Virus record (IMG/VR): IMGVR_UViG_3300046000_005823
Span: 1 to 28,842 of that record
Length of the DNA stretch: 28,842 nt
Strand: one strand, 5' to 3'
Origin: a virus
The translations under genes and the position numbers were made by a program. The notes under the pieces were generated by a model. That model saw only the letters and a program-made list of their open reading frames with translations. It ran no database searches and was not told where the DNA came from. Position 1 is the stretch's first letter, and every line of letters begins with the position of its first letter. Positions 4,183 to 28,842 of the stretch are shown here, one piece after another.

Positions 4183-5838
4183 TTATAGAGAACAAGCTCC
4201 ACCACAAGTCGTAAATTCTCCAACTGAGGTATCTAATACATATCCAGGTCCTGAACCAGTTGTTCCTACAATTAAATATACATGATTAATATCCGAAGCA
4301 TCTGGGTAGAACTTACCTGTATTTACTGTTTGACTACTAGGGAATGATACTGTTATTCCACTAACTACTACAGTACATGTAGAGCACTGGTACTTATCGG
4401 CTATATAATGACTATATATTACTTCTGTTGTAGTCGTACTAGTTGTAGAAGTGGTAGTAGTTGGAGCCAATGTAGTGGTAGTTGTCGTACTAGTCGTAGT
4501 GGTTGGAGCTATAGTCGTTGTAGTTGTCGTACTAGTCGTAGTAGTCGTAGGCGCTACGGTTGTTGTAGTACTAGTTGTTGATGTAGTACTTGTAGTAGGC
4601 GCCGCGGTAGTGGTAGTACTTGTTGTGCTTGTAGTTGTTGTTGGAGTCGTAGTAGTAGTCGTGCTAGTAGTACTTGTAGTCGTAGTAGTTGGAGGTCCCG
4701 AATATGGAATCATCGCGTCTTGATACTCCTCATCTGTAATAATGATTACTCCTTGAGAATATAATACATTTCCTACGTGATTATTTTGAGTATATATAGT
4801 ATTTGATAGATAATCTTTCGATGAATATATTACACTAAGTCCTCCTGGAATAGAAGATCCCATGGGTTCTGCTGCTATGCTAGCAGATATTTGTGATTGA
4901 GTATTATTATAGACCTCGATTCCCATGGAGCCAGGATTACTTGGATCTGGGATACCTGCGTTAGTTACCACGTATTTTATATTATGAGTACCCGCGGTTA
5001 GACTAATTGGATATATATGCCAATATCTAAAATTAGTTCCATTACCATCTGGAATTCCTAAACTAACTGTTAAATTATCGTCTATATAAACAGATCCATA
5101 ATTATCGCAACCAATTCCAAAATAATATGTACCAGCAGTTACAGTGATATTAAACTGTATAGCGAAGTCTCCAAAATAAGTTAACGATTTTGCTGACCAA
5201 AGACCAGAGTAGTTTAATCTTCCCGTTTGATTTGCGGTAACTGGATTAGTCCAAAAAGTACCAGCATATGATCCTCCTGTATAAGATGTGTTCCATTCTA
5301 ATGATGTACCAGTTCCATTTATAGAATATCCTGGAGAATATAATCTTACTCCAGATGATGCGTATGCCACGTTAGTTGATGGTTGTGATCCTGTAGTATA
5401 GGTATCTATAACATTTCCATTTCCATCATCAATTAGTCTATATGTACTACCAGAAATAAGCAAACTTTTTCTAGCAATTTGTTCTCCAAAAGCAGTTCTA
5501 GGAATTCCTATGACAGTAATTTCTGCACTAGAGCTAGTTGGAAAATATCGATAATCATTATCAAAAGTTCCTTCTGCTGCTGTAGATTGAATTGAAGGAT
5601 TCCAAAAGCTTGAACTACTTAATAAAGATCCTGTAAGATACTCTTGATAGTAAAGCTGTTTTACTAAAGCATAGTTTAAGTAAGTTACTCCGTCAGTATT
5701 AAACGAAGTATTTATCCCACGATTAACTGTAATACCGTTTGCAGTAAACGATGAGCTATCGTAACTGGCTGAGTATTTAAGTAGAATCGGAGTAGTGGAA
5801 ACTTCTGAACGTTTTATTGTGTTCTGTCCGCGACTCAT
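4183..5838 (-). CDS. Tail adhesin with PA14-like domain and mucin-like Thr/Ser linker
   Basis: A 551-aa structural protein, probably a tail-fibre or receptor-binding adhesin. Residues 1-150 are a polar beta-rich region that may attach it to the tail. About 165-330 resemble a PA14/GLEYA-type sugar-binding beta sandwich: FAIQFNITVTAGTYYFGIG, an acidic GSVYIDD element, and LTAGTHNIKYV are typical of that fold. Residues 384-471 are almost pure Thr/Ser, built of six proline-started units of about 14-16 residues. The C-terminal ~80 residues form a cysteine-containing domain (CSTC, CGGAC) that could be the binding tip. Thr is encoded by mixed ACN codons, so the tract is kept at protein level rather than by triplet slippage. 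Two glycosyltransferases follow directly. PA14 assignment is moderate, adhesin role inferred. Confidence 0.65.
   Translation of the reverse strand: MSRGQNTIKRSEVSTTPILLKYSASYDSSSFTANGITVNRGINTSFNTDGVTYLNYALVKQLYYQEYLTGSLLSSSSFWNPSIQSTAAEGTFDNDYRYFPTSSSAEITVIGIPRTAFGEQIARKSLLISGSTYRLIDDGNGNVIDTYTTGSQPSTNVAYASSGVRLYSPGYSINGTGTSLEWNTSYTGGSYAGTFWTNPVTANQTGRLNYSGLWSAKSLTYFGDFAIQFNITVTAGTYYFGIGCDNYGSVYIDDNLTVSLGIPDGNGTNFRYWHIYPISLTAGTHNIKYVVTNAGIPDPSNPGSMGIEVYNNTQSQISASIAAEPMGSSIPGGLSVIYSSKDYLSNTIYTQNNHVGNVLYSQGVIIITDEEYQDAMIPYSGPPTTTTTSTTSTTTTTTPTTTTSTTSTTTTAAPTTSTTSTTSTTTTVAPTTTTTSTTTTTTIAPTTTTSTTTTTTLAPTTTTSTTSTTTTEVIYSHYIADKYQCSTCTVVVSGITVSFPSSQTVNTGKFYPDASDINHVYLIVGTTGSGPGYVLDTSVGEFTTCGGACSL
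4423..4692 (-). repeat. Six-unit degenerate tandem repeat encoding Pro-(Thr/Ser) units
   Basis: Inside the adhesin gene, about 270 bases encode six tandem units of the form P-T4-6-S-T-T-(S)-T4-6 with one or two hydrophobic or Ala residues before the next Pro. Units are 42-48 bases and diverged at third codon positions. Such arrays expand and contract by recombination, so length may differ between related phages. Confidence 0.8.
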
Positions 5839-22148: not shown

Positions 22149-23078
22149 ATGAACAATGAAAGTCTTATTATAGGAGTACTAGAATCTGTTCTCGGTAAGA
22201 GTAAGCCATTTCCCAAAACCAAAGATTTCGCATTTTATTGTCCTATTTGCAACCATAAGAATCCGAAGCTTATTGTTAACGCAAAGTCTGGTAAGTATAA
22301 CTGCTTCACTTGTCACCCAGCTACAAAAGGACAATCACCGATTACGCTATTAAAAAAGATCGGAGCTCCAAGCGAGACTATAGTAGAAATGAAGGGCTAC
22401 TTAGGCTATCTTACAAAAGCCGAAGATCATGTATCAACATCAGTAAACCTACCTAAAGAATTTATTAGTCTATTAGAGAAAGAAGAATCTTTAGAGAAAC
22501 GGCACGCAATAGCATATATAAAGTCTAGAGGCATTACTGAGAATGATATTATAAAGTACAATATTGGATATTGTAAGACTGGAAAGTATAGAAATAGAAT
22601 CATTCTTCCTTCATATAATAAGAAAGGCATGATCAACTATTTTCTAGCGAGATCTTTCGAAAAGAATCCAGTTAGAAAGTTCGATGCTCCAATCTGCAAT
22701 AAAACAGAGATTATCGGTCTTGAAAACACGATCAATTGGGCAGTACCAGTAATACTTTGCGAAGGTATATTTGATGCAATAGCAATAAAAAGAAACGCAA
22801 TACCATTATTCGGTAAAACAATACCAAAAGCTTTAATGCTTAAGCTTGTAGAGTCTCAAGTAAAGACTGTTTATTTAGCTTTAGATAAGGATGCACTAAG
22901 AGAAGCGATAGACTACGCTAAAAGACTTATCGATATAGGTAAAGAAGTCTATCTTATAGAATTAGAGGGTAAAGATCCTTCAGACCTAGGATTTGAAAAG
23001 GTTACAGAATTACTTCACGAAGCGAGGCCATTGACTTTCTCTGACCTGCTATTAAAAAAGATGCAATTAGTCGCATGA
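22149..23078 (+). CDS. DnaG-type DNA primase (zinc finger plus TOPRIM)
   Basis: A 309-aa primase, functional counterpart of T4 gp61. An N-terminal zinc finger has CPIC (C31, C34) and CFTC (C52, C55), the DnaG zinc-binding layout for recognising the template. After a linker comes the catalytic TOPRIM core: VILCEGIFDA with catalytic E205, then VYLALDKDA with D246 and D248, and an EGKDPSDLG segment (about 273-281) typical of phage primase/helicase TOPRIM domains. No helicase motifs follow, so unlike T7 gp4 this protein needs a separate helicase, which is not in the window. It is shorter than bacterial DnaG and lacks the C-terminal helicase-binding domain. The stop codon overlaps the next start (ATGA), coupling it to the SbcD-SbcC gene. 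It would make RNA primers for the lagging strand in the infected cell. Confidence 0.85.
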   Translation: MNNESLIIGVLESVLGKSKPFPKTKDFAFYCPICNHKNPKLIVNAKSGKYNCFTCHPATKGQSPITLLKKIGAPSETIVEMKGYLGYLTKAEDHVSTSVNLPKEFISLLEKEESLEKRHAIAYIKSRGITENDIIKYNIGYCKTGKYRNRIILPSYNKKGMINYFLARSFEKNPVRKFDAPICNKTEIIGLENTINWAVPVILCEGIFDAIAIKRNAIPLFGKTIPKALMLKLVESQVKTVYLALDKDALREAIDYAKRLIDIGKEVYLIELEGKDPSDLGFEKVTELLHEARPLTFSDLLLKKMQLVA

Positions 23079-26000
23079 TAAAAACGTACTTGAATTTAGA
23101 CACAGTAGAAAAGATATATCACGTTAGCGATATTCACATTAGAAACTTTAAACGACACGAAGAATACAGAAGAGTATTCGATACCTTAAAGAAAACGATA
23201 GTAGAGACTTCTGATGAAAAATCAATAATCTGTTTAACTGGAGATATTGTTCACTCAAAGACAGACGTAACTCCTGAATTAGTGTATCAAGTGCAAGATC
23301 TTCTAAAATCTTTGGCAGACATACGACCAGTATTACTTATTCCAGGTAACCATGATGCTAACTTAAATAATAATAGTAGAATGGATGCATTGACTCCTAT
23401 AGTCGATGCGATAAACCATCCTAATATTGCTTACATTAAAGACAGCGAAGTTTTTAAGATTGGAAACATTACTTTTTCTCATTGGTCTGTATTTGATGAA
23501 GATTATACTAAGGCAGAAGATATTCAAGGAGACTACAAGATCTGTCTGTATCACGGCTCTGTACAAAGCGCGGTAACTGAAATAGGTTTTAAACTTGAGG
23601 GTGGAAAGATAAAGACTAGTCACTTTGATGGATTCGATCTAACCTTATTGGGAGATATACATAAGCTTCAATATCTAAATGAAGAAAAGACTATTGCGTA
23701 TCCTGGATCTTTAATACAACAGAATCACGGAGAAAGCTTAGAGCATGGTATCTTAGTATGGAATGTAAAAGATAAGACCAGCGAATTTGTTGAGATTCCT
23801 AATGACACTGCTTTTTACACTATGTATGTAGACTCAGGAGTAGTTAATCCTCCACTTACAGATCTCGCTAAAAACATGTATTTAAGAGTAAGACATACTA
23901 ATACTGATCAGAATACCTTAAAACAACTAATATCAGAAGTAAAGAAGTCACATAATGTTATTGAGCAGTCTATTCAAAGGATACATAGCATTCAAGAACT
24001 ATCTAATTATAGCTCTAAAAATAGTAGACTAATTGACGTAAGAGACGAACAGCAACAGAACGATCTAATCCAGAAGTTTTTAAGCAAGAAGTATAAACTA
24101 ACAGAAGATCAAAAACAACACATCAAAGAGATTAACGCGTATATAAATCAGCAGTTACCTAAACTAGAGTCTTCTAGAAACGTTATATGGAATCCTAAGA
24201 CGTTTGTTTTTGAAAACATGTTTAGCTATGGTAAAGACAATTCCATAGACTTTACAAATATGAGAGGAACTTATGGCATATTTGCTGCTAACGCTTCAGG
24301 TAAGTCTACTTTATTAGACGCTTTAAGTTATTGTATATTCGATAAGTGCTCTAAAACTAATAGATCTTCTCAAGTCTTAAACAGTTCATCAAATACATTT
24401 TACTGTAAACTAGATTTTGAATTAAATGGAGTTAATTACGTCATAGAAAGGGATGGTCTTAGAGAAAAAAATGGTAATGTTAGAGTTAAAGTTAACTTTT
24501 ATTACACTGATGATTTAGGAAATAAGGTCTCCTTAAATGGTAAAGAAAGAAACGATACTAATGCAAGCATACGAGCTGTGCTTGGAAGCTACGAGGACTT
24601 CACTCTGACTGCACTTAGCACACAGGGAGCTAACTCTGGATTCATTGATATGAACCAAAAGGACAGAAAAGAGCTGCTCAGTCAGTTCCTAGACATCAAT
24701 ATATTCGAAACTATGTTTGACTTTACTAACAACGAGATAAAAGATATCTCCGCAGTAATGAAACAGTATCAAAAGATTGACCATAGCGTAGAAGTACAAA
24801 GAATAGACGAACAAAAGGTCACTATAAACAAAAAGATAGACGAATTAAAGCATCAAAAGCATGATCTTGAGTTAGATAGAGACAATTTAAACAAAAAGAT
24901 ACTCGAGGAGCACATTATGTTACAGACTGTTAGCTCTAAAACAGCTAATGAAGATCAGATAAAAGCTGAAATAGCTCAACTAAATCAGCAATTGGTCAAA
25001 TCTATATCAGATGAAGCTGTGTGTGTATTAGATTCTAAGTCTGCAAAAGATGAATTAGATGAATATGAGCAAAATTTATCGCAAATTAACATAGAAGATC
25101 TAGATAAACGCCTACAACAATATAAGGAGCTAACTAAAGATAAAAATGCTATAACTATTGAGATAAACAAACTTAATATTCATCTTTCCCATCAAAAAGA
25201 TAAGCTAAACAAGCTTCAAGAGTTAGAGTATGACGAGAACTGTACTTATTGCATGAACAACGTATTCGTTAAGGACGCTATTTCTACCAAACAGAGTCAC
25301 GAAGATCTAGTAAAGCAGAAAGAAGTACTTGAAATTGACTTAAGTATCGTAGAACAAAGCATAAAAAAGCTTGGTAATGTAGAAGAAGACAACAAACAGT
25401 ATGATACATTGCTACAGAAGATCAATGATACTGAAAAGAAGTCGTTAAAATTTGAATCAGACCTTCAAAAAGTTCAAATAGAACAAACAAAAGTCAAACA
25501 AAAGATAAAAGACAAAGAGACAGAGCTAGACACTTACAGAAAAGAAAAGAAAAAGATAGAACAAAACACTGAAGTACAAGCTAGGATAGATGCTTATGAA
25601 CTTGAACATAAGACGACTGAAAATAATCTTAAAAAGGTTAACGATGATCTAACTGAGAACTTACTAAATGTTAATTCGCTTAGCTCAAAAAGAGATAAGT
25701 ATACTAATGATCTTACTGAACTAGTCAAACTTCAATCAAAGTATGATCTTTATAAGATGTATAGCGAAGCAGTTCATAGAGATGGCGTACCTCATCAGCT
25801 AATATCAGATACTATACCTCAGATTCAAGAAGAGATCAATACAATACTTCAACAGCTAGTTGATTTCATGGTAGTTCTTCACCCAAATGATAAAAATATC
25901 AATGCATACATCGCTTATGACAATGATAGATATTGGCCTATAGAACTTACTTCAGGAATGGAGAAGTTTGTAGCCAGTCTAGCGATTAGATCTTCGCTAA

Positions 26001-26227
26001 TTAATGTTTCTTCTTTACCAAGACCTAATTTTATAGCGATAGATGAAGGCTTTGGAGCTCTAGATAGCAATAACTTAGGAAGTATAGTCTCTTATTTTGA
26101 TCATTTAAAAAATCAGTTTAAGTTTATCATGATTATATCACACATAGACTCAATGAGAGACGCTGTAGATCACCATATAGAAATAAATAAGATTGCAGGA
26201 AAATCTAACGTACAACACGGAAGTTAG
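23075..26227 (+). CDS. Fused Mre11-Rad50-like recombination nuclease (SbcD-SbcC, gp47-gp46 equivalent)
   Basis: A 1050-aa single chain holding both parts of a DNA-end-processing complex that is normally two proteins. Residues 1-230 are a calcineurin-type nuclease like Mre11/SbcD/T4 gp47, with metal ligands DIH (D19, H21), GDIVH (D57), GNHD (N92-D94), H160 and GDIH (D194, H196). Residues ~385-1040 are Rad50/SbcC/gp46-like: Walker A ANASGKST (about 404-412), a long coiled coil split by a CTYC zinc hook (C723, C726), signature LTSGMEKF near 957, and Walker B FIAIDEGFGALD near 987. The join lies in a helical linker (about 300-380). The complex would resect DNA ends for recombination-dependent replication. 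All key residues are present. ATGA overlap with the primase gene indicates shared translation. Confidence 0.88.
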   Translation: MIKTYLNLDTVEKIYHVSDIHIRNFKRHEEYRRVFDTLKKTIVETSDEKSIICLTGDIVHSKTDVTPELVYQVQDLLKSLADIRPVLLIPGNHDANLNNNSRMDALTPIVDAINHPNIAYIKDSEVFKIGNITFSHWSVFDEDYTKAEDIQGDYKICLYHGSVQSAVTEIGFKLEGGKIKTSHFDGFDLTLLGDIHKLQYLNEEKTIAYPGSLIQQNHGESLEHGILVWNVKDKTSEFVEIPNDTAFYTMYVDSGVVNPPLTDLAKNMYLRVRHTNTDQNTLKQLISEVKKSHNVIEQSIQRIHSIQELSNYSSKNSRLIDVRDEQQQNDLIQKFLSKKYKLTEDQKQHIKEINAYINQQLPKLESSRNVIWNPKTFVFENMFSYGKDNSIDFTNMRGTYGIFAANASGKSTLLDALSYCIFDKCSKTNRSSQVLNSSSNTFYCKLDFELNGVNYVIERDGLREKNGNVRVKVNFYYTDDLGNKVSLNGKERNDTNASIRAVLGSYEDFTLTALSTQGANSGFIDMNQKDRKELLSQFLDINIFETMFDFTNNEIKDISAVMKQYQKIDHSVEVQRIDEQKVTINKKIDELKHQKHDLELDRDNLNKKILEEHIMLQTVSSKTANEDQIKAEIAQLNQQLVKSISDEAVCVLDSKSAKDELDEYEQNLSQINIEDLDKRLQQYKELTKDKNAITIEINKLNIHLSHQKDKLNKLQELEYDENCTYCMNNVFVKDAISTKQSHEDLVKQKEVLEIDLSIVEQSIKKLGNVEEDNKQYDTLLQKINDTEKKSLKFESDLQKVQIEQTKVKQKIKDKETELDTYRKEKKKIEQNTEVQARIDAYELEHKTTENNLKKVNDDLTENLLNVNSLSSKRDKYTNDLTELVKLQSKYDLYKMYSEAVHRDGVPHQLISDTIPQIQEEINTILQQLVDFMVVLHPNDKNINAYIAYDNDRYWPIELTSGMEKFVASLAIRSSLINVSSLPRPNFIAIDEGFGALDSNNLGSIVSYFDHLKNQFKFIMIISHIDSMRDAVDHHIEINKIAGKSNVQHGS

Positions 26228-26300: not shown

Positions 26301-26516
26301 ATGGCACTCAATTCAAAATCTTTAAAAAATTCTCCAAAGAGCGCATTCTCTGGTCAAACTATTCCTGATACTTATCAAAGTATAGAAGGACTAAGGAATT
26401 CAACTTCTTATGCATCAAATAACGATGGAGCGATATTAGCAGGATCAACGCTAGGTGTTATTCCAACTACTACAACCACTACCTCTACTACGACTACGAC
26501 TACCACCACTGCATAA
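26301..26516 (+). CDS. Small protein with C-terminal poly-Thr tail
   Basis: A 71-aa protein of unknown function. The first ~53 residues are polar (SPKSAFSGQTIPDTYQSIEG, then SYASNNDGAILAGSTLG) without a recognisable domain, signal peptide or membrane helix. The end is VIP followed by six Thr, one Ser and eight Thr, almost identical in form to one unit of the Thr/Ser repeat in the adhesin at 4183-5838, although this gene is on the other strand about 20 kb away. Thr codons are mixed, so it is not a simple triplet expansion. The upstream leader is A-rich (AATAAAAAATAATT). It may be a virion decoration or a substrate of the glycosyltransferases; alternatively it is the remnant of a longer fibre gene cut after one repeat. 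Confidence 0.5.
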   Translation: MALNSKSLKNSPKSAFSGQTIPDTYQSIEGLRNSTSYASNNDGAILAGSTLGVIPTTTTTTSTTTTTTTTA

Positions 26517-26537: not shown

Positions 26538-28842
26538 ATGAAAACAACTGTTCTACTTCCAGGAGGATTTAAACCTCCTCATGGCGGGCATCTACAACTA
26601 GCAAACGCCTACGCAAAAAACCCAGAAGTAGATAAGGTAATCGTGATGATTGGTCCAGCAGAAAGAGACGGAATAACTAGAGAGCAATCTATGGCAGTTT
26701 GGAAGATGCTACCAACAGATAAAAAAGTAGAAATACTTTCTGTATCTGCTGAAAATCCAATGGCTGCAGCTTTTGATTATGTTTTAAATATGAGTAAAGA
26801 TGCTAAAGGAAGGTTTGCGATGGCAGCTAGCTCTAAAGGAGATGATGCAAAGCGATCTGACTCATTTGTAAAATCAATAGAAGCTTACAAAACAAAACAA
26901 ACTAAAGACGGAAGAAACGCTCCAGAAGGAGTAACTCCAGTTAAACTTCCAATAGATGTCGCTCCATTAAATTATAAAGGCAGATCTGATGAATATGAAG
27001 GGAAAGGAGTAAGTGCATCAGTATTAAGAAAAGATTTAGCTAACTCAGATAAAGAGCAGTTCGCAACAAATTATCCAGGACTTGATAACAATACAGTTTC
27101 AAAGATATACGATGTGTTATCAAAAAAAAAGAAAGCCATATACGAGATTATAGAAGAGAGGGCGGTCCTTTCTACTCTGATTCGTACTTTATTGGTTGAA
27201 GGAGGAAATGTATTTCAAGGAACTCAAAGAATTAAACTAGCCGATATAGATCCTACAATTTCTTGGCTTGAAGACAAGTCAGGACTTTCTCTTAAGGATA
27301 ATATGCTAGGAACTACAGGTAAAAAAGCAGATAGCGGAGACTTAGATTTAGGAGTAGATAAAAACAAAGTAGATCAAAATGCGCTAATTAGCAAACTTAC
27401 TGCTAACGGAATAGATAAAGCAGACATCAAAAAGTCAGGAACAAACGTTCACGTAAAGACTCCTATAGCGGGAGATCCTGAAAATGGATTTGTACAATCA
27501 GACTTCATGTTTAACGATGATGTTGATTTCATGAAGTTCTCTATGCAAGGCGGAGCAAAAGATAGTCCTTACAAAGGCGTACATAAGCACTTAGTATTGT
27601 CTAGCATAGCGAAAGCTCAAGGAATGAAATGGTCATATCTTAACGGACTAGTAGATAGAGCAACTAACAAAGTAATAAGCAAGAATCCTAGCGAAATAGC
27701 GACTAAATTACTAGGACAAGGAGCGAAGCAAGAAGATCTAATCAGCGTAGAGGCTATAGTAAAAGCGATAAAAAACAAACCACAATACGAAGAGTGGATG
27801 ACACAAGCAAGACAGGATCTAGCAAAAGATGGTCTTGAGCTTCCTAAAAAAGAAGATCTTAAAGAATCGATAAAAAATATACAAAAGCTAATTAAACTTT
27901 TTGAAGCCGCATCAGCAAGAATTCAACATCCTGAAGACTTAATTTATTGGGATGGATCTAAAGGAGCTGAAAGAGCTTTACAAGTAATGGATAAAGCCGC
28001 AAAAGACCCATCAACTACATCAGTAAAATGGGATGGATCTCCAGCTGTAGTATTTGGAGTAGATGAAAATGGTAACTTCATATTAACAGATAAGAGTGGA
28101 TTCGCTGCAAAAGGATATGATGGCAAAGCTAAAAGCGCAAAAGAAATAGAGACAATGTTTAAAAATAGGGCAATAAAATCTGCTGAAAAGAGTGGAACTA
28201 AACCTAATTTTACTTTTGCAAAAAGCATGGCTAACGCTTACGAAGTATTTAAAAAGTCTTGGCCAAAAGGACTCACTGGATATTTCAAAGGAGATCTATT
28301 ATATCAAAGCAAGCCAGAAGTTATTGATGGAGAGTATGTATTTAAACCAAACATAACTACCTATAAGATCCCAGTTAATAGTGAACTAGGAAAGCAAATA
28401 ACAAAAAGCGAAGTAGGAGTTATACCACATGTTTACCAATCTTTAGACGGAAAAGAATCTGGAGTAAAAGACGCAAAGCAATACAAGTTTAATCCATCAG
28501 GAGGACTCATGGTATTCTCACCAGTGTTTTCAAAAAGCGGAGCAAAGATAGACAGTAAGCTAATGAGCGCAGCTAAATCAGCTGTCTCTAGCGCTAAATC
28601 TGCAGATAAATTACTAGATAAAAGCAAACTTAGTCAAGAAAAAATGACTGATTATGCTGATATGCTTTATAAGTTTACTAACTCTAAAGCAGCTAGTATG
28701 AATACATTAAGCTCAAAAGAGTTCATTAAGTTTTTAGAGAGTGAAAAGACTATTAGTGATGGCAAAAAAGCCAAAATGATAGAGTATTCTCAACAAAATC
28801 AATCAGATTTAGAGAAGATATTTAATGCTGTAAAAGCAATCC
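26538..28842 (+). CDS. Multidomain nucleotidyltransferase: HxGH NTase + Pol-beta-like NTase + KxDG ligase-like (partial, runs off the window)
   Basis: An open frame of 768 codons without a stop, cut by the window edge. Three modules can be read. (1) Residues 1-~185: cytidylyltransferase/NMNAT-type, with LLPGGFKPPHGGHL holding the HxGH motif (H15, H18) and the second motif VSASVLR (158-164). (2) About 235-430: Pol-beta-type nucleotidyltransferase, with a glycine before SGDLDLGVD (D268, D270) and a third carboxylate in VQSDFMF (D322). (3) About 470-650: covalent-nucleotidyltransferase-like, with SVKWDGSPAVVFG (K497, the nucleotide-binding lysine of the KxDG motif), FKGDLLY (585-589) and a KPNITTYKIP segment. 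The end is Lys/Ser-rich and helical. ATG at 26538 follows AGAGG weakly and starts exactly at the first strand. The combination suggests RNA or nucleotide repair; the substrate is unknown. Minus-strand frames inside it are shadows. Confidence 0.7.
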   Translation, partial: MKTTVLLPGGFKPPHGGHLQLANAYAKNPEVDKVIVMIGPAERDGITREQSMAVWKMLPTDKKVEILSVSAENPMAAAFDYVLNMSKDAKGRFAMAASSKGDDAKRSDSFVKSIEAYKTKQTKDGRNAPEGVTPVKLPIDVAPLNYKGRSDEYEGKGVSASVLRKDLANSDKEQFATNYPGLDNNTVSKIYDVLSKKKKAIYEIIEERAVLSTLIRTLLVEGGNVFQGTQRIKLADIDPTISWLEDKSGLSLKDNMLGTTGKKADSGDLDLGVDKNKVDQNALISKLTANGIDKADIKKSGTNVHVKTPIAGDPENGFVQSDFMFNDDVDFMKFSMQGGAKDSPYKGVHKHLVLSSIAKAQGMKWSYLNGLVDRATNKVISKNPSEIATKLLGQGAKQEDLISVEAIVKAIKNKPQYEEWMTQARQDLAKDGLELPKKEDLKESIKNIQKLIKLFEAASARIQHPEDLIYWDGSKGAERALQVMDKAAKDPSTTSVKWDGSPAVVFGVDENGNFILTDKSGFAAKGYDGKAKSAKEIETMFKNRAIKSAEKSGTKPNFTFAKSMANAYEVFKKSWPKGLTGYFKGDLLYQSKPEVIDGEYVFKPNITTYKIPVNSELGKQITKSEVGVIPHVYQSLDGKESGVKDAKQYKFNPSGGLMVFSPVFSKSGAKIDSKLMSAAKSAVSSAKSADKLLDKSKLSQEKMTDYADMLYKFTNSKAASMNTLSSKEFIKFLESEKTISDGKKAKMIEYSQQNQSDLEKIFNAVKAI

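What the first reader, a model, noticed from the sequence alone, without database searches (positions are those of the whole stretch)
26538..28842. Three different nucleotidyl-transfer active sites in one phage polypeptide
Seen in the sequence: an HxGH/VSASVLR cytidylyltransferase-type site, a Pol-beta-type SGDLDLGVD...SDF triad, and a ligase/capping-type KWDG lysine with a following GDLLY. Each belongs to a distinct nucleotidyltransferase superfamily. Together they could activate a small molecule, transfer it to a nucleic acid or protein and seal a strand, for example repairing host-cleaved tRNA, adding a 5' or 3' cap, or adding a hypermodified group. I recall proteins of this general make-up in marine T4-like phages annotated only as hypothetical or cytidylyltransferase; no function is known to me.
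Basis: partly seen in the sequence, partly recalled or inferred. Interest (0 to 1): 0.75.

Follow-up and report, generated by a model that had tools for sequence, protein, structure and literature searches.

The report
Phage triple nucleotidyltransferase, possible packaged repair kit
A T4-like phage gene fuses three enzyme modules, one resembling NAD/CoA-making enzymes, one resembling gap-filling DNA polymerases and one an unrecognised nick-sealing ligase, and relatives carry signals suggesting that such enzymes are packed into the virus head and may be cut apart there before entering the host.

Summary
One ORF (window 26538-28841, cut by the window end; about 825 aa in relatives) carries three nucleotidyl-transfer sites. 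AlphaFold models support three folds: 1-198 a PPAT/NMNAT-type HxGH domain; 213-440 a DNA polymerase X-like palm and thumb; 458-825 Pfam DUF6267, a divergent ligase-superfamily domain whose motifs IV and V lie beyond the window edge. Catalytic residues are invariant or nearly so in dozens of relatives, except H15. The modules are interchangeable: elsewhere polymerase-like and ligase genes are separate neighbours, or ligase and HxGH protein are, beside primase, helicase or SbcCD genes. Published mass spectrometry finds the HxGH homologue in cyanophage virions. Best model: a nucleic-acid end-repair set (fill, then seal), derived from or acting as head-packaged proteins and possibly matured by the prohead protease. 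Activity, substrate (DNA or RNA) and packaging of this particular fusion are inferred. New variant of a known kind; closest experimental parallel: the PolX-ligase fusion of Phaeocystis globosa virus.

The parts
26538..28841 (+). Three-module ORF, 3' end missing (768 of about 825 codons)
   Evidence: full length in L007
26538..27131 (+). HxGH nucleotidyltransferase module (PPAT/NMNAT fold), residues 1-198
   Evidence: profile match to PPAT/NMNAT structures, best E 9e-7; model matches PPAT Z 11.5
26580..26591 (+). HGGH motif (H15, H18)
   Evidence: H18 12/12, H15 3/12
27012..27029 (+). SASVLR motif (S159 to R164), the ISxTxxR-type site
   Evidence: S159 and R164 12/12
27192..27200 (+). Putative prohead-protease site LVE|G (E221) between HxGH and PolX-like modules
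   Evidence: 12/12 fusions; 79/93 standalone PolX-like proteins have M..[LIVM]xE|GG near the N-terminus
27174..27857 (+). PolX-like module, residues 213-440
   Evidence: Foldseek top matches Pol lambda/mu/beta; VIA Z about 10 over 224-405
27333..27350 (+). SGDLDL (D268, D270)
   Evidence: 61/61
27495..27512 (+). QSDFMF (D322)
   Evidence: 61/61
27897..27905 (+). Putative prohead-protease site LFE|A (E456) between PolX-like and ligase modules
   Evidence: 12/12 fusions have a site in this linker
27909..28841 (+). DUF6267 ligase-superfamily module, residues 458-768; C-terminus outside the window
   Evidence: Pfam PF19782; model pLDDT 95.8; all listed VIA matches are ligases
28026..28037 (+). KWDG, motif I, predicted adenylated lysine K497
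   Evidence: 77/77
28290..28304 (+). GDLLY, motif III-like (D586)
   Evidence: D in 76/77
23075..26227 (+). Upstream neighbour: SbcD-SbcC (gp47/gp46-like) fusion
   Evidence: Pfam Metallophos, AAA_23, SbcC_Walker_B
22149..23078 (+). Upstream neighbour: DnaG-type primase
   Evidence: Pfam Zn_ribbon_DnaG, DNAG_N, Toprim, just below cut-offs

Best explanation
The gene encodes a nucleic-acid end-repair set made of three nucleotidyltransferases. The PolX-like module adds nucleotides to a 3'-OH by the two-metal mechanism (D268, D270, D322). The DUF6267 module adenylates itself on K497, passes AMP to a 5'-phosphate and seals the nick. The HxGH module is an adenylyltransferase-type domain (NMNAT/PPAT-like) whose substrate is unknown. 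The set belongs to, or derives from, the internal head proteins of T4-like phages: relatives of the ligase and HxGH protein carry capsid-targeting leaders, and the fusion keeps an [LI]xE|G/A/S site at each module boundary where a gp21-type prohead protease could cut it into three enzymes delivered with the genome. Most likely use: filling and sealing nicks or gaps in incoming or replicating phage DNA. SHOWN (sequence or prediction): three folds, conserved active sites, gene pairing, linker sites, leaders. SHOWN by others: HxGH homologues in cyanophage virions. INFERRED: all activities, cleavage, packaging of this fusion, DNA as substrate.
For: Folds and motifs. PolX-like gene and DUF6267 are adjacent and co-directional in 99 loci, gaps mostly -93 to +4, or fused. 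In Agrobacterium phage Atu_ph07 and Sinorhizobium phage Phosso, which lack DUF6267, the gene abutting PolX-like is another ligase-superfamily protein with KLDG and EGVV. One search lists as 'RNA ligase [Agrobacterium phage Atu_ph07]' a 324-aa protein matched by the DUF6267 model, the same length as that gene. Context: primase, DnaB/gp41 helicase, SbcCD, UvsX, gp43. Leaders: 65/79 standalone ligases versus about 1% in shuffles and 69/1055 other ORFs; stricter T4-like pattern 25/79 versus 0.5%. Linker sites: 12/12 and 12/12, conserved nowhere else. T4 gp21 cuts after L/I-X-E (PMC9026906). gp21-type protease PF03420 in all ten isolate records searched. S-SCSM1 NMNAT-like protein found in virions by MS (PMC9602691; annotated so) starts MKSFLQFLKE|A. 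T4-GC190 cytidylyltransferase found in S-SM1 virions (PMC3037559); T4-GC190 lies next to DUF6267 in P-HM2 and S-PM2.
Against: The fusion itself has no N-terminal leader: 0 of 16 HxGH-bearing fusions, so its packaging rests on relatives; the linker sites could be relics of fused genes. The broad leader pattern was written after seeing the ligase N-termini, so its rate is partly circular. DUF6267 has no OB fold after motif V, and its best structural match is an RNA ligase. A separate ATP DNA ligase (PF01068) coexists with DUF6267 in seven records, so it is not simply the phage DNA ligase. The PolX-like module lacks room for the 8-kDa and HhH parts. Profile-profile support for PolX is weak: score 24.4 against 21.6 for the best of 60 decoys, probability 5.6%. 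Cyanophages have ligase and HxGH but no PolX-like gene.
Confidence: 0.36

Rival explanations
1. RNA repair. DUF6267 is an RNA ligase and the PolX-like domain a 3' nucleotidyltransferase; together they rebuild and reseal host RNAs (for example tRNAs cut by defence nucleases).
For: Best structural matches of DUF6267 are Naegleria RNA ligase (Z 7.7) and RNA-editing ligase REL1 (7.0), before DNA ligase I (6.5). No C-terminal OB fold. Named RNA ligases outnumber DNA ligases in the viral structure library. The partner gene in Atu_ph07 has a weak RNA_ligase match (E 0.002).
Against: The nearest relatives of the PolX-like fold are DNA polymerases. Clusters lie in the DNA replication region. No end-healing kinase or tRNA gene was found in the window. 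Z values of RNA and DNA ligases differ by little more than 1.
Confidence: 0.27
2. Intracellular DNA repair or Okazaki-type processing, never packaged. The linker sites are chance or relics and the fusion works as one polypeptide in the infected cell.
For: No leader on the fusion; replication-module context; cyanophages and pelagiphages lack a detected gp30-type ligase (PMC2984593), so DUF6267 could fill that role there.
Against: Leaders on most standalone ligases; both linker sites conserved in all 12 fusions and nowhere else; HxGH homologues found in virions (PMC3037559, PMC9602691).
Confidence: 0.22
3. NAD-centred function: the HxGH module makes NAD (NMNAT) to alter host metabolism or feed the ligase; the other modules are secondary.
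For: NMNAT/PPAT fold; NMNAT-like proteins repeatedly seen in cyanophage virions, and an NAD role was proposed by others (PMC9602691).
Against: The first catalytic His is lost in most fusions and in the S-SCSM1 virion protein, GRFNPPTVGH. Two unalike HxGH domains sit on near-identical bodies, and most PolX-ligase loci show no HxGH protein nearby.
Confidence: 0.08
4. Scaffolding or head-core proteins whose enzyme folds are no longer catalytic.
For: Virion association of homologues; loss of H15; leaders.
Against: PolX-like and ligase catalytic residues invariant or nearly so in 61 and 77 diverse relatives.
Confidence: 0.04

Closest known systems
PgVPolX of Phaeocystis globosa virus, PolX fused to an NAD+-dependent DNA ligase (PMC5537341)
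   Same: Polymerase-X-like module followed by a ligase-superfamily module in one viral protein; fill-and-seal logic
   Different: PgVPolX has the 8-kDa lyase domain and a full LigA-type ligase, and its activities were demonstrated. Here there is no 8-kDa domain, the ligase is DUF6267 without OB fold, and an HxGH domain is added.
DUF6267 (PF19782) with the adjacent cytidyltransferase (T4-GC190) of T4-like cyanophages
   Same: Homologous ligase module; neighbouring HxGH protein; one HxGH homologue is a known virion protein
   Different: No PolX-like module there; separate genes, or a ligase-HxGH fusion as in S-PM2 (591-aa entry)
T4 internal head proteins Alt and IPI-III with prohead protease gp21 (PMC9026906)
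   Same: [LI]xE|A/G sites; leaders of the type MKTYQEFIAE|A in relatives
   Different: The fusion itself lacks the leader; T4 internal proteins do not include polymerase or ligase modules
Naegleria RNA ligase, trypanosome REL1, T4 Rnl2
   Same: Predicted ligase fold and motifs I, III, IV, V
   Different: About 7-13% identity in structural alignments; long helical insertion before motif IV in DUF6267

Membership tests
DNA polymerase X family | Catalytic carboxylate triad DxD plus D in a GS...SGD[LM]D context | tested here: met
   SGDLDL and D322 invariant 61/61
DNA polymerase X family | Palm and thumb fold | tested here: met
   Foldseek top matches Pol lambda/mu/beta; VIA Z about 10, 163 residues, 3 A; predicted model only
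DNA polymerase X family | N-terminal 8-kDa and helix-hairpin-helix parts | tested here: not met
   Most standalone proteins start within about 15 residues of EGGNVF; linker only in the fusion. Called PolX-like, not a canonical PolX.
DNA polymerase X family | Sequence-profile similarity | tested here: inconclusive
   hhalign score 24.4 versus 21.6 for the best of 60 column-shuffled decoys, probability 5.6%; no Pfam match
Covalent nucleotidyltransferase (ligase/capping) superfamily | Motifs I (KxDG), III, IV (EGxV), V | tested here: met
   KWDG 77/77, D of GDLLY 76/77, EG 76/77, K of motif V 74/77
Covalent nucleotidyltransferase (ligase/capping) superfamily | Adenylyltransferase fold | tested here: inconclusive
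   All 50 listed VIA rows are nucleic-acid ligases, but best Z is 7.7 and Foldseek E is 0.3
ATP-dependent DNA ligase | C-terminal OB fold with motif VI | tested here: not met
   The protein ends about 12 residues after motif V
Covalent nucleotidyltransferase (ligase/capping) superfamily | Lysyl-AMP formation and strand sealing | not testable with these tools
   needs protein
HxGH nucleotidyltransferase superfamily | HxGH and ISxTxxR motifs | tested here: met
   HGGH and SASVLR in the window; first His not conserved in relatives
HxGH nucleotidyltransferase superfamily | Rossmann-like PPAT/NMNAT fold | tested here: met
   Z 11.5 to PPAT; PDB profile hits E 9e-7
T4-type internal head proteins | N-terminal capsid-targeting leader | tested here: not met
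   0/16 HxGH-bearing fusions; met in 65/79 standalone ligase relatives
T4-type internal head proteins | [LI]xE cleavage sites at domain borders | tested here: met
   12/12 at both borders
T4-type internal head proteins | gp21-type protease in the same phage | tested here: inconclusive
   Present in all ten isolate records and in the 158-kb fusion-bearing contig G007; the window record is too short to tell
T4-type internal head proteins | Presence in the virion | not testable with these tools
   Only homologues of the HxGH module were reported in virions (PMC3037559, PMC9602691)

The most novel reading that the evidence does not exclude
A T4-type phage packs a polyprotein of three nucleotidyltransferases into its head; the prohead protease cuts it into an NMNAT-like enzyme, a minimal PolX-like polymerase and a new ligase family (DUF6267), which enter the host with the genome and repair nucleic acid ends at the start of infection.
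Probability: 0.25. Interest if true: 0.85.

Novelty: new variant of a known kind. Interest (0 to 1): 0.6.

Why it matters
DUF6267 is found in 468 phage records, mostly cyanomyoviruses, and has no assigned function. Reading it as a ligase offers an answer to the published puzzle that cyanomyoviruses lack a recognised DNA ligase (PMC2984593), or else reveals a widespread RNA ligase. The link to capsid-targeting leaders would explain why NMNAT-like proteins keep turning up in cyanophage virions, and suggests that marine T4-like phages carry repair enzymes into the cell.

Tried and rejected
DUF6267 as a plain replacement of gp30 DNA ligase: rejected as a general rule, since PF01068 ligases coexist with it in seven records. 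Sequence-profile links to solved ligases or PolX: none for DUF6267, none for the PolX-like module; the paired ligase-like proteins of two giant phages gave none. hhalign with PolX gave only weak support. Search for PolX-like relatives outside phages: a single distant hit in one MAG contig. Downstream genes of PolX-like loci without DUF6267 were scanned for KxDG/EGxV motifs: no convincing ligase found in most. The 508-aa gene before DUF6267 in cyanophage ACG-2014j is not PolX-like. No paper in the library mentions DUF6267. Capping enzymes did not appear among the listed structural matches, which does not exclude them.

Full report
What is there. The ORF at 26538-28841 (+) is open to the window edge with 768 codons. 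Close relatives in viral contigs show that the full protein has about 825 residues; L007 is 89% identical and complete. The missing 57 residues hold GGEGYV and IKLVNR, which fit ligase motifs IV and V.

Three modules. AlphaFold on a 109-row alignment gave a confident model (mean pLDDT 87). The low pTM (0.51) and weak linkers mean that domain placement is not predicted. Residues 1-198 match PPAT and NMNAT enzymes (Z 11.5; profile hits). Residues 224-405 match the palm and thumb of DNA polymerases lambda, mu and beta. DUF6267, modelled alone from 77 sequences (pLDDT 95.8), aligns only with nucleic-acid ligases in the 50 rows listed: Naegleria RNA ligase Z 7.7, REL1 7.0, DNA ligase I 6.5. These Z values are modest, and Foldseek alone was not significant. 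The ligase reading therefore rests on the combination of fold ranking and conserved motifs I, III, IV and V. A helical insertion separates motif IV from the earlier motifs, and there is no OB fold behind motif V.

Conservation. D268, D270 and D322 are invariant in 61 PolX-like sequences, KWDG in 77 ligase sequences, D586 and the EG of motif IV in 76 of 77. H18, S159 and R164 are invariant in 12 HxGH modules, but H15 is His in only three.

Modularity. Across the loci the commonest arrangement is two adjacent genes, PolX-like then DUF6267, usually overlapping by a few bases. Others are fused, in either order, or carry an HxGH domain at the N-terminus, at the C-terminus or as a separate gene. Cyanophages and Methylophilales phages have DUF6267 followed by an HxGH protein and no PolX-like gene. 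Two giant phages have the PolX-like gene next to a different ligase-superfamily protein. A structural search with the DUF6267 model independently lists an Atu_ph07 'RNA ligase' of 324 residues, the length of that neighbour. So the partner of the PolX-like module is usually a ligase, which is the best argument that they work together; some PolX-like loci have no recognised ligase nearby.

Context. In the window, the gene follows a DnaG-type primase and an SbcD-SbcC fusion. Elsewhere the genes follow primase and DnaB-type helicase, or UvsX, gp41 and MazG.

Head-protein signals. Standalone DUF6267 proteins begin with sequences such as MRAFEFLTEA, MRFNEIINEA and MKRFVEYLAEA, close to T4 IPII and IPIII (MKTYQEFIAEA). 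A strict pattern fits 25 of 79 against 0.5% in shuffles; a broader one, written after inspection, fits 65 of 79 against about 1% in shuffles and 69 of 1055 other ORFs in the same loci. Standalone PolX-like proteins have [LIVM]xE|GG near the start in 79 of 93. In the fusions, [LIVMF]xE|[AGS] occurs in all 12 rows at both module borders and in no other place in more than two rows outside the linker regions. T4 gp21 cuts after L/I-X-E (PMC9026906), and gp21-type proteases are present in all isolate records searched. The fusion itself has no N-terminal leader, so packaging of this protein is inferred only.

Virion data from the literature. A cytidylyltransferase of cluster T4-GC190 was found in virions of S-SM1 (PMC3037559). 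In P-HM2 and S-PM2 the T4-GC190 gene lies directly behind DUF6267; in the AJ630128 S-PM2 record its ORF includes the C-terminal half of DUF6267, and a 591-residue S-PM2 entry matches the whole DUF6267 model. An NMNAT-like protein was found in virions of S-SCSM1 and similar reports are cited there (PMC9602691); it starts MKSFLQFLKEA and lies in a block of virion proteins between helicase/MazG and primase/NrdA genes. In that phage DUF6267 lies elsewhere and is not marked as a virion protein.

Mechanism. The most economical reading is fill-and-seal: the PolX-like module extends a 3' end, DUF6267 seals. PgVPolX proves that a viral PolX-ligase fusion can do this in repair (PMC5537341). DNA is favoured by the polymerase fold and gene context; RNA is favoured by the ligase fold and the missing OB domain. 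A separate DNA ligase in seven of the records argues against a simple gp30 replacement, while in cyanophages and pelagiphages without gp30 (PMC2984593) DUF6267 could serve. I put DNA ahead only slightly.

Novelty. Each fold is known, HxGH proteins in virions are known and a PolX-ligase fusion is known. New here are the ligase reading of DUF6267, the triple fusion, and the conserved protease-like sites at its borders. Hence a new variant of a known kind.

Noticed in passing
L002, L004, L006 versus window and L007, residues 1-150: Two unalike HxGH domains (15-18% identity) sit on PolX-ligase bodies up to 88% identical: an N-terminal domain swap.
   Followed up: partly
L007:10463-11377, L004:10003-10536, L006:9970-10908: A gene overlapping or abutting the 3' end of the fusion encodes a HExxH metallopeptidase-like domain, in L006 and L007 fused to a NT5C/HAD phosphatase-like domain. 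In L031, L034, L036 and L042 the HAD gene lies directly before the PolX-like gene.
   Followed up: partly
L007:13196-16400 and equivalent parts of L006, L008, L015: A run of small proteins starting MIKLTDLIKE, MKLKDLLKEA, MIKLKDILKE and similar, with leaders resembling capsid-targeting sequences.
   Followed up: no
L083 and L085, 3718-6854: Two diverged DUF6267 genes flank one PolX-like gene.
   Followed up: no
L029:5711-6667 (c52), L036:7002-8417 (c24): Further Pol-beta-type nucleotidyltransferase motifs (VGST..YGDIDV; RGSL..SDFDLH) next to PolX-like genes, so these islands hold several such enzymes.
   Followed up: no
L010:2835-5323: The fusion is split into two overlapping frames near residue 525; a frameshift or sequencing error.
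   Followed up: no
window 4183-5838 and 26301-26516: Two ORFs with long runs of Thr/Ser (TTTTSTTSTTTT), one in a block of probable tail genes, one directly before the fusion.
   Followed up: no
L182 (Stenotrophomonas phage DLP_6): DUF6267 and a cytitidyltransferase outside the marine phages, in a phage that also has a PF01068 DNA ligase.
   Followed up: no
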